A DNA stretch of 64,000 nt from Hyphomicrobiales bacterium (GTDB lineage Bacteria > Pseudomonadota > Alphaproteobacteria > Rhizobiales > Rhizobiaceae): positions 248,001 to 312,000 of the forward strand of contig UCNG01000006.1 in the NCBI GenBank assembly GCA_900473915.1, written 5' to 3'. Positions 19,161-41,339 of the stretch are shown piece by piece. Below the pieces are notes generated by a model. The model had not been told where the DNA came from, made no database searches, and saw only the letters and a program-made list of their open reading frames with translations. Numbering within the stretch: the stretch's first letter is position 1; every line of letters starts with the position of its first letter. Both the position numbers and the translations under genes were made by a program.

Positions 19161-19266
19161 CCCCGAACTCCTGTTTTCAAGTCATGGCGCAGAATTGCGC
19201 AAACCATGCTAATTTTGCCTAGATAATGAGCATACCAAAATTAGCTCAAAAAATATGCGTGTTTTC

Positions 19267-19295
19267 TTGACGTTTGCCCCGTTCAGACGTAACTT
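19267..19295 (+). promoter_or_regulatory. Candidate sigma-70-type promoter of the small RNA
   Basis: TTGACG, 17 bases, TAACTT on the plus strand. Predicted transcription start is near 19302, directly before the first hairpin of the candidate small RNA. Confidence 0.6.
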
Positions 19296-19301
19296 AAATC
19301 T

Positions 19302-19387
19302 CAGACAGGTTTTCCTGTCGATGCCTTTCGGGGCATTTCCTCCCTAGTCTTTGACCGCGCTCGTAATCCTCGGGCGCGGTTCTTTTT
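19302..19387 (+). ncRNA. Candidate trans-acting small RNA, alpha-r8/MmgR (suhB motif) type
   Basis: About 85 nt with three hairpins: GACAGG-TTTT-CCTGTC (19304-19319), ATGCC...GGCAT (19321-19336), and a terminator ACCGCGC...GCGCGGT (19354-19380) followed by TCTTTTT. Between the second and third lies the unpaired, CU-rich TTTCCTCCCTAG (19336-19347), able to pair with Shine-Dalgarno sequences. It has its own promoter and is transcribed away from hisN, against the flanking genes. Size, order of hairpins and the anti-SD motif agree with the alphaproteobacterial MmgR family, originally found next to suhB-like genes. AbcR/alpha-r15 is a less likely alternative. Confidence 0.72.
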
Positions 19388-19415
19388 ATCCGTGAGAATG
19401 CAGTTGCGGAACGGG

Positions 19416-20306
19416 CTACTCCGCGGCCAGCGGCGGCGCGATAAACAGATCATCCGGCAGGGATGTCAGAACGCTGAGAAAGCCGTATAGATCGGCGCAG
19501 AGCGTTTCGAAGCCAGCAAGCTTGTGCAGGGTCTGCTCATTCACATAAAGGCTTCGATTGATCTCGATCTGGAGCGCATGGCAAGCCATGGCGGGACGCC
19601 CGTAATGCTCGGTGATGAACCCGCCCGCATAAGGCTTGTTGTGCGCGACGGTGTAACCCAGGTCCTGAAGGAGATCGATGGCGGCCTGCGTCAGCCTTTC
19701 GCTGCATGACCGTCCGAAACGATCACCGACGATAAAGTCTGGACGCGATCCGACTTCGCCGGGCCGAACGCCTCCCGGCATCGAATGGCAGTCGATCAGC
19801 ACGGCATAACCAAAACGCTGGCGCGTGGACTGAAGCAGCGCTTCAAGCGCCTGGTGATAAGGCTTGTAGAGATCTTCAATGCGATAAAATGCTTCGGCGA
19901 GCGGAATGCGTCCCGGATAGATCAGCTGTCCTTCGCCGACCAGACGCGGGACCGTGCCCAGCCCGCCTGCAACGCGCGCCGACTGGCTGTTGACGAAAGG
20001 CGGCAACGGCTCGGCGAACATGCGTGGATCGAGCTCGTAGGCCTCTCGATTTACATCCAGAAAAGCACGCGGAAAATGCGCCTTCAGCAAAGGTGCGCCG
20101 AGCCTGGTTGCCGAGGCAAAAAGCTCATCGACATAACAGTCTTCCGAATGGCGTATGCTGAGGGCATCGAGGCGCGAGGCTTCAACGAAGGCATGCGGAT
20201 AATAGCGCCCGCTATGCGGTGAATTGAAGACAAACGGAATGCGTTGTTCCGCCGGAGCGCATATCTCGAAGGGCGGTATCAGACTAAAATCGCGCTCCAA
20301 ACTCAT
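19416..20306 (-). CDS. N-formylglutamate amidohydrolase family protein
   Basis: 296 residues. The family hydrolyses N-formyl-L-glutamate to glutamate and formate, the last step of one histidine-breakdown route. Seen: 'FVFNSPHSGRYYP' near residue 27 with a conserved His, 'SIRHSEDCYVDELF', 'FLDVNREAYELDP', 'VLIDCHSMPGG' near 165, and 'QIEINRSLYVNE' near 250. No hut genes are adjacent, so the physiological substrate may be another N-acyl amino acid. ATG at 20306, weak GGGTGAAG upstream. It diverges from cpdR. Confidence 0.88.
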   Translation of the reverse strand: MSLERDFSLIPPFEICAPAEQRIPFVFNSPHSGRYYPHAFVEASRLDALSIRHSEDCYVDELFASATRLGAPLLKAHFPRAFLDVNREAYELDPRMFAEPLPPFVNSQSARVAGGLGTVPRLVGEGQLIYPGRIPLAEAFYRIEDLYKPYHQALEALLQSTRQRFGYAVLIDCHSMPGGVRPGEVGSRPDFIVGDRFGRSCSERLTQAAIDLLQDLGYTVAHNKPYAGGFITEHYGRPAMACHALQIEINRSLYVNEQTLHKLAGFETLCADLYGFLSVLTSLPDDLFIAPPLAAE

Positions 20307-40758: not shown

Positions 40759-41010
40759 GGTCGTTCTCCCGCACGGCTTGATCTTGCCGTATTCTAAGGG
40801 ACAAAGTGTGCATGAACGCATCCGCGGTGAGAACAGCCTTTGGAGATGCTGGTATCACGCGAAAACTCATGCGGCGATGGAACAACGCTCAATTCGCGTT
40901 ACTCCGCTTTGTCTGCCTTGGATTGGAATTGGAGAACCGCATCCGCACTTCTGGCAATGAAGGTGTGCCTCTTCAGTAATTTCAGCTTTTGGACAGCCGA
41001 AAGACACTAG
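40759..41010 (-). promoter_or_regulatory. Structured leader of odc, candidate speF-type RNA motif
   Basis: On the minus strand a hairpin ACGGC-AAGATCAA-GCCGT (40773-40790) ends two bases before the GGGAGA ribosome-binding site. Further upstream the leader carries a small open frame (40867-41007). Alphaproteobacterial ornithine decarboxylase genes of this class are known to have a conserved 'speF' leader RNA. Position and gene fit; I cannot check the consensus structure from memory, so the assignment is by context. Confidence 0.45.
40867..41007 (-). CDS. Possible 46-residue leader peptide upstream of odc
   Basis: A frame opening with GTG at 41007 and ending 108 bp before odc. It would code for a small cysteine-rich peptide: 'FGCPKAEITEEAHLHCQKCG' then 'CGSPIPIQ'. 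Spacing of the five Cys/His residues suggests a zinc ribbon. The upstream sequence (GGGCC) is a poor ribosome-binding site and the frame continues open further up, so translation is unproven. It could equally be a by-product of a conserved RNA structure. Confidence 0.25.
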   Translation of the reverse strand: MSFGCPKAEITEEAHLHCQKCGCGSPIPIQGRQSGVTRIERCSIAA

Positions 41011-41339
41011 AAAGGCCCGCACCGTCGTTGCTTCAAGATGTCCTCGATCTGGCGGTTGGCCAACAGATCGACTGGAGCGGTTAGGTCCAGGTACCGTACC
41101 GAATTCCTCACCATTCGAGGATCGGCGGACACCCACAGGCACGTGCGACTTTGGGCAACCGCGATATAAGTCCAAAGTCGTGTCCATTCAATGACAAAAA
41201 CTTCTCTGGATGAATTTATTTTTGGCAGGATCACATTGAACGGCATGCTTGCCATTGTTCAATATTAGTGAAACATTCTTCGCTTGGACCCGCTTTGAAA
41301 GAGGGTAAACATCCCGTTAATTGCTGCATGTTGTGAACA
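41011..41339. other. Divergent spacer between the odc leader and the amidase gene
   Basis: About 330 bp carrying the promoters for both directions. Frames open on the minus strand (to 41255 and 41495) overlap each other or the amidase and look non-coding. No palindromes of note. Confidence 0.35.

What the first reader, a model, noticed from the sequence alone, without database searches (positions are those of the whole stretch)
19267..19387. Candidate stand-alone small RNA with an anti-Shine-Dalgarno CCUCCCU motif next to hisN
A promoter (TTGACG-17-TAACTT), two hairpins, an exposed UUUCCUCCCU and a strong terminator are stacked within 120 bp, on the strand opposite to both flanking genes, which have no use for such a terminator. 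The layout matches the alphaproteobacterial alpha-r8/MmgR small RNA, first noticed as the 'suhB' motif beside inositol-monophosphatase-type genes such as hisN. Family assignment is from memory.
Basis: partly seen in the sequence, partly recalled or inferred. Interest (0 to 1): 0.72.

Follow-up and report, generated by a model that had tools for sequence, protein, structure and literature searches.

The report
MmgR-type small RNA beside hisN
This looks like a genuine small regulatory RNA of a known bacterial family (suhB/MmgR), but in this Brucella/Ochrobactrum group it has outlived the plastic-storage pathway the family is named for, so its job here is probably something else.

Summary
Window 19316-19394 (+) matches Rfam RF00519 (suhB/mmgR) at 55.7 bits, cut-off 41, and folds as two hairpins, an open anti-Shine-Dalgarno stretch and a terminator. 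The same gene lies between hisN and the N-formylglutamate amidohydrolase gene, opposite to both, in 71 of 80 related loci. It is an alpha-r8/MmgR orthologue.

In the window's clade PhaR is missing from 29 of 29 genomes and PHB synthase from 28 of 29; both are present in 16 of 16 others. The PhaR operator between -35 and -10 is present in 45 of 47 other members, 0 of 25 clade members. The CU-rich loop of hairpin 2 is present in 46 of 47 others, 0 of 25 here, but also missing from 6 of 30 further PhaR-bearing genomes. The core is identical in all 72. This looks like one ancestral event. The RNA seems kept for non-PHB targets under different control. Expression, Hfq binding and targets are untested; the window's own genome is not held.

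The parts
19267..19295 (+). sRNA promoter: TTGACG, 17-nt spacer, TAACTT; the spacer lacks the PhaR operator found in most PhaR-bearing relatives
19302..19389 (+). inferred sRNA transcript of about 85 nt (start inferred from the -10 box, not mapped)
   Evidence: inference
19304..19319 (+). hairpin 1 (GACAGG-UUUU-CCUGUC), mostly outside the RF00519 match; 6 of the 7 pairs counted show double changes across 54 sequences
19320..19337 (+). hairpin 2; loop UUCG here, where 46 of 47 members outside the clade in the hisN set have a CU-rich loop
19336..19345 (+). anti-Shine-Dalgarno core UUUCCUCCCU, identical in 72 of 72 members
19353..19389 (+). intrinsic terminator: 11-pair stem 19353-19381 and U tract
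19316..19394 (+). Rfam RF00519 suhB/mmgR match, 55.7 bits
18384..19160 (-). hisN/suhB-type inositol-phosphatase family gene (PF00459), divergent neighbour
19416..20306 (-). N-formylglutamate amidohydrolase gene (PF05013), conserved neighbour

Best explanation
The window carries the hisN/FGase-linked alpha-r8 (suhB/MmgR) small RNA of a Brucella/Ochrobactrum-group bacterium. It is transcribed from its own sigma-70-type promoter and ends at its own terminator, giving an RNA of about 85 nt (anatomy and conservation shown; transcription inferred). It most likely binds Hfq and pairs its open UUUCCUCCCU with Shine-Dalgarno regions of several mRNAs, blocking translation, as reported for Caulobacter SisA (inferred by homology). 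In this clade the link to PHB storage appears to be gone: the PHB pathway and the PhaR repressor were lost, the PhaR operator in the promoter decayed, and the CU-rich loop of hairpin 2 was replaced. The invariant core implies that the RNA still controls other genes, probably for nutrient uptake or catabolism (inference).
For: Rfam hit above cut-off. Own covariance model finds it at the hisN junction in the window and 71 of 80 loci, 77-107 bits (17 of these built the model); the next best match is 23 bits. In all 71 the core lies between FGase and hisN, opposite to both. Covariation over 54 of the 72 members: 96.4% of cells paired, 10 of 20 pairs with changes on both sides, 0 of 500 shuffles reach it. 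Within the clade (25 sequences, columns taken without gaps) information per base is 1.82 in hairpins 1-2 and 2.0 in the core and linker, against 0.72 upstream, 0.84 in the spacer and 0.21 downstream; length differences lower the outer values. PhaR absent in 29 of 29 and PhaC in 28 of 29 clade genomes, both present in 16 of 16 others. Operator 0 of 25 against 45 of 47. CU-rich loop 0 of 25 against 46 of 47. Hfq gene in 13 of 13 genomes searched. Family mechanism: SisA represses targets through the 10-mer (PMC12559287, passages).
Against: No expression, Hfq or target data for this organism, and its own genome is not held, so PHB loss is shown only in relatives. The co-loss is best read as one event. 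Exceptions: Tianweitania (L071, L072) lack the operator although the L071 genome has PhaR; G044 has the operator and PhaC but no PhaR hit (possibly an assembly gap). Four of 30 further PhaR-bearing genomes lack the strict operator and 6 of 30 lack the CU-rich loop, so the loop does not track PhaR strictly. Perfect core-matching start sites are not clearly commoner in sRNA-bearing genomes (7-14 each, four genomes) than in sRNA-less ones (4-9 each, four genomes).
Confidence: 0.88

Rival explanations
1. It is an AbcR/ar15-type sRNA rather than alpha-r8.
For: Same Rfam clan (CL00108) and a similar CU-rich pairing motif.
Against: In clan competition only suhB was kept for the window. Of 15 secondary or sub-cut-off RF00519 loci rescanned (L086-L100), 14 are ar15, and none of the 15 has hisN or FGase beside it. 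AbcR RNAs are described with two anti-SD motifs (PMC7143759, passages); the window has one.
Confidence: 0.02
2. It is a cis element: a leader, or a terminator serving a neighbouring gene.
For: It lies in the upstream region of hisN.
Against: It is on the strand opposite to both genes. In the 9 of 80 loci without it, hisN and FGase lie 42-217 bp apart with no Rfam suhB match. PMC1273637 gave up the cis reading because the motif lies on the strand opposite to the suhB gene (passages).
Confidence: 0.03
3. It is a degenerate remnant, no longer functional after PHB loss.
For: The operator and the CU-rich loop are gone; the RNA itself is missing in Falsochrobactrum and Paenochrobactrum.
Against: Core, hairpins and terminator stem are far more conserved than their surroundings within the clade, with compensatory changes across members.
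Confidence: 0.05
4. It still regulates PHB-related genes in this organism.
For: Founding function in S. meliloti (PMC8401924, passages); one clade genome, G003, carries two PhaC genes and a phasin.
Against: 28 of 29 clade genomes have no PhaC, 29 of 29 no PhaR, and 7 of 8 searched have no phasin.
Confidence: 0.07

Closest known systems
MmgR (sm8, suhB) of Sinorhizobium meliloti, alpha-r8 family, RF00519
   Same: Family model, core, terminator, three stem-loops; lies opposite to both flanking genes (identity of the S. meliloti neighbours recalled)
   Different: No PhaR operator in the spacer, no CU-rich loop in hairpin 2, and no PHB pathway in nearly all related genomes
SisA of Caulobacter crescentus (alpha-r8)
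   Same: Beside FGase, same 10-mer core (PMC12559287, passages)
   Different: Caulobacter has four siblings and a CrfA sponge; the four Brucella-group genomes searched, G001-G004, have one over-cut-off copy each; no search for a CrfA-like sponge was made
AbcR1/AbcR2 (ar15, RF02345)
   Same: Same clan, CU-rich anti-SD pairing
   Different: Separate loci without hisN or FGase, two anti-SD motifs

Membership tests
alpha-r8 / suhB / mmgR (RF00519) | covariance-model score above gathering | tested here: met
   55.7 vs 41 bits
alpha-r8 / suhB / mmgR (RF00519) | open 10-nt core UUUCCUCCCU after a short hairpin | tested here: met
   19336-19345; 8 of 10 open, first two in hairpin 2 in the prediction
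alpha-r8 / suhB / mmgR (RF00519) | intrinsic terminator | tested here: met
alpha-r8 / suhB / mmgR (RF00519) | linkage to the FGase gene | tested here: met
   FGase at 19416-20306; linkage as stated in PMC12559287
alpha-r8 / suhB / mmgR (RF00519) | Hfq-bound stand-alone transcript | not testable with these tools
   Hfq gene in 13 of 13 related genomes; no RNA data
MmgR as PHB regulator | PhaR operator between -35 and -10 | tested here: not met
   absent in the window and 24 of 24 other clade members
MmgR as PHB regulator | PHB synthase and PhaR in the genome | tested here: inconclusive
   missing in 28 of 29 (PhaC) and 29 of 29 (PhaR) clade genomes; window's own genome not held
AbcR / ar15 (RF02345) | best clan match is ar15 | tested here: not met
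   suhB is the match kept

The most novel reading that the evidence does not exclude
In the ancestor of the Brucella-Ochrobactrum group a PHB-control RNA was set free. With PHB synthesis and the PHB-sensing repressor gone, its promoter lost the repressor site and its CU-rich loop was replaced, while the core was kept unchanged in 25 of 25 members. It became a one-motif regulator with new inputs and a non-PHB target set: a traceable case of an sRNA surviving the loss of its named pathway.
Probability: 0.45. Interest if true: 0.5.

Novelty: new variant of a known kind. Interest (0 to 1): 0.36.

Why it matters
The RNA itself belongs to a known family. What would matter is that the family's only named physiological role known to me, PHB granule control, probably cannot be carried over to this clade, which (recalled) includes animal pathogens and soil bacteria. 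Rfam-based annotation labels it 'Makes More Granules Regulator' in organisms that nearly all lack PHB synthase. It also offers a natural experiment for separating the conserved core function of alpha-r8 RNAs from the PHB add-on.

Tried and rejected
Target search: perfect matches AGGGAGGAA upstream of ATG were counted in four sRNA-bearing genomes (G002 11, G001 14, G003 13, G004 7) and four sRNA-less ones (G005 9, G006 4, G009 6, G007 5); the reversed control pattern gave 0 or 1 each. One of G001's 14 is a nested duplicate. Allowing for genome size this does not separate the two groups, so no target is claimed. The most notable sites lie before an acyl-CoA dehydrogenase and a 3-hydroxyisobutyrate-dehydrogenase-like gene in tandem in G002, with identical site strings in G001; the first also occurs in sRNA-less G009.

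Independent PhaR loss: G108 (L158) lacks PhaR, PhaC and the operator, but the hisN+FGase tree puts it as sister of the clade (support 0.87), so it is not counted as a second event. Of the 15 PhaR-less genomes, 12 have no over-cut-off sRNA and say nothing; the three that do are G029 (already in the clade set), G044 and G108.

Relocated operator: none within 220 nt upstream of the core in 23 of 25 clade members; L022 has one strict match inside the RNA and L025 a loose, CG-only match in the spacer.

The conserved block TTAGCTCAAAAAATATGCG upstream of -35 was considered as a regulator site; read on the other strand it could be the hisN -35 box (TTGAGC), so it is left open.

Literature: the listings of the searches show no report of this decoupling; one search was uninformative (its terms matched unrelated words). 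The one MmgR paper I asked for (J Bacteriol 2017) is not held; Lagares 2016 and the Ceizel-Borella promoter papers were not looked up, so prior notice cannot be excluded.

Full report
Check of the observation. The Rfam scan of the whole window gives four hits, one of them RF00519 suhB/mmgR at 19316-19394 (+), 55.7 bits against a cut-off of 41, E 9.1e-9. The fold is far better than shuffles (z -5.89, 0 of 200; z -5.47, 0 of 200, for the inferred transcript). The terminator is found by a plain scan (11 pairs, 8 G-C; 3 terminator-like sites in 801 bases against 1.1 in shuffles); the promoter is not found by E. coli consensus, but TTGAC stands 68-71 nt upstream of the core in all 72 members.

What it is. 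The 80 best relatives of the neighbouring phosphatase (of 94 confirmed) were fetched from named genomes. A covariance model built from 17 members and searched over the window and all 80 loci finds the RNA in the window and 71 of 80, at 77 bits or more, with the next match at 23 bits. In those 71 the core lies between FGase and hisN, which share a strand, and is opposite to both. The 9 without it are Falsochrobactrum (L023, L026, L030), Paenochrobactrum (L027, L036), Pseudaminobacter (L035, L077), Aquamicrobium (L050) and a MAG (L042); their FGase-hisN gaps are 42-217 bp, and Rfam finds no suhB there above its cut-off. The covariation count on 54 of the 72 members shows 96.4% of cells paired, 10 of 20 pairs with double changes and a covariation score above all 500 shuffles. 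Hairpin 1, most of which lies before the start of the RF00519 match, has double changes in 6 of 7 pairs; its outermost pair, which I added, is unpaired in 24 of 54. Related sequences inflate such scores, but slid versions fall to 36-52% paired.

Copy number. Each of four Brucella-group genomes (G001-G004) has one over-cut-off RF00519 hit and two or three weaker ones. Of 15 secondary or sub-cut-off loci rescanned, in these and other genomes, 14 are ar15/AbcR and none has hisN or FGase beside it. Some genomes of the wider family have several over-cut-off hits.

Link to PHB. In S. meliloti, MmgR limits PHB granules, is Hfq-dependent, activated by NtrC and repressed by AniA/PhaR (PMC8401924 and PMC7143759, passages). 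PhaR binds the mmgR promoter at a palindrome with core YGCRNYGCR (PMC12542648, passages). In the sequences here, TGC-N3-GCA lies between -35 and -10 in 6 of 6 Phyllobacterium-like and 39 of 39 Mesorhizobium-like members, in 0 of 2 Tianweitania, and in 0 of 25 members of the window's clade including the window. Chance per promoter is about 0.6%. Spacer information is 1.67-1.73 bits in the first two groups and 0.88 in the clade. In 30 further loci, the ones fetched from 40 PhaR-bearing genomes searched (of 133; 36 of the 40 had a match, 34 over the cut-off), 26 of 30 have the strict core inside the promoter and 29 of 30 a strict or loose core within the wider upstream stretch. At least one of these (L194) is a genome already counted (L040).

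PHB genes. I tested 45 of the 80 genomes. PhaR (PF07879) is absent in all 29 of the Brucella-Falsochrobactrum-Paenochrobactrum clade and present in all 16 others. PhaC_N (PF07167) is absent in 28 of the 29 and present in 16 of 16 others; the exception G003 has two copies. Phasin_2 (PF09361) is absent in 7 of 8 clade genomes and present in 5 of 5 others. L033, named Brucella endophytica, falls outside the clade in the tree and has PhaR, PhaC and the operator, so it is counted outside. Among the 37 sRNA-bearing genomes of these 45, operator and PhaR agree in 36 (24 without both, 12 with both; L071 the exception).

RNA change. The hairpin-2 loop is CU-rich (CUCCUU or CUUCUU) in 46 of 47 members outside the clade and in 0 of 25 inside, where it is UUCG-like; TTTCCTCCCTAG is identical in all 72. 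In the 30 further PhaR-bearing loci the loop is present in 24 and missing in 6, so its loss alone is no marker of PHB loss. A review places a predicted targeting aSD in the first loop of MmgR (PMC7143759); whether that is this loop I did not verify.

How independent. The hisN+FGase tree (113 of 114 taxa, midpoint-rooted) supports one clade (0.87) with the PhaR-less, PhaC-less, operator-less L158 as its sister (0.87). So the losses are best read as one ancestral change followed by long retention of the RNA, with loss in Falsochrobactrum and Paenochrobactrum. G044 contradicts a strict rule: operator and PhaC present, PhaR not found.

Mechanism. Shown here: gene anatomy, conservation, context, co-distribution. 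Inferred: transcription, Hfq binding, pairing with Shine-Dalgarno regions and repression (by homology to SisA, PMC12559287), non-PHB targets. My target search did not discriminate.

Place of the window. Of the first 30 loci it is closest to L002, Brucella pseudintermedia, 90.3% over 7.1 kb aligned; species not determined. Literature status: S. meliloti sm8 lies between SMc04042 and SMc04043, opposite to both, with a Northern doublet below 100 nt (PMC2573895, passages). Two Brucella sRNA papers do not mention suhB or mmgR in their main text (PMC4365724, PMC4845025, term searches).

Noticed in passing
window 40854-41156 (-): An ar45 sRNA (RF02347, 162 bits) ends 8 nt before a speF leader (RF00518, 123 bits) on the same strand, suggesting one leader transcript with both elements.
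   Followed up: no
window 19208-19270: Inverted repeat GCTAATTTTG/CAAAATTAGC, and a block TTAGCTCAAAAAATATGCG upstream of the sRNA -35 that is well conserved in the clade; possibly the divergent hisN promoter (TTGAGC on the - strand).
   Followed up: partly
G003, the genome of L007 (Brucella pseudogrignonensis), contig C6: Two PhaC genes and a phasin on one contig, without PhaR, in a clade whose other tested genomes lack PhaC; perhaps acquired.
   Followed up: no
L071, L072 (Tianweitania): sRNA promoter without the PhaR dyad although the L071 genome encodes PhaR.
   Followed up: no
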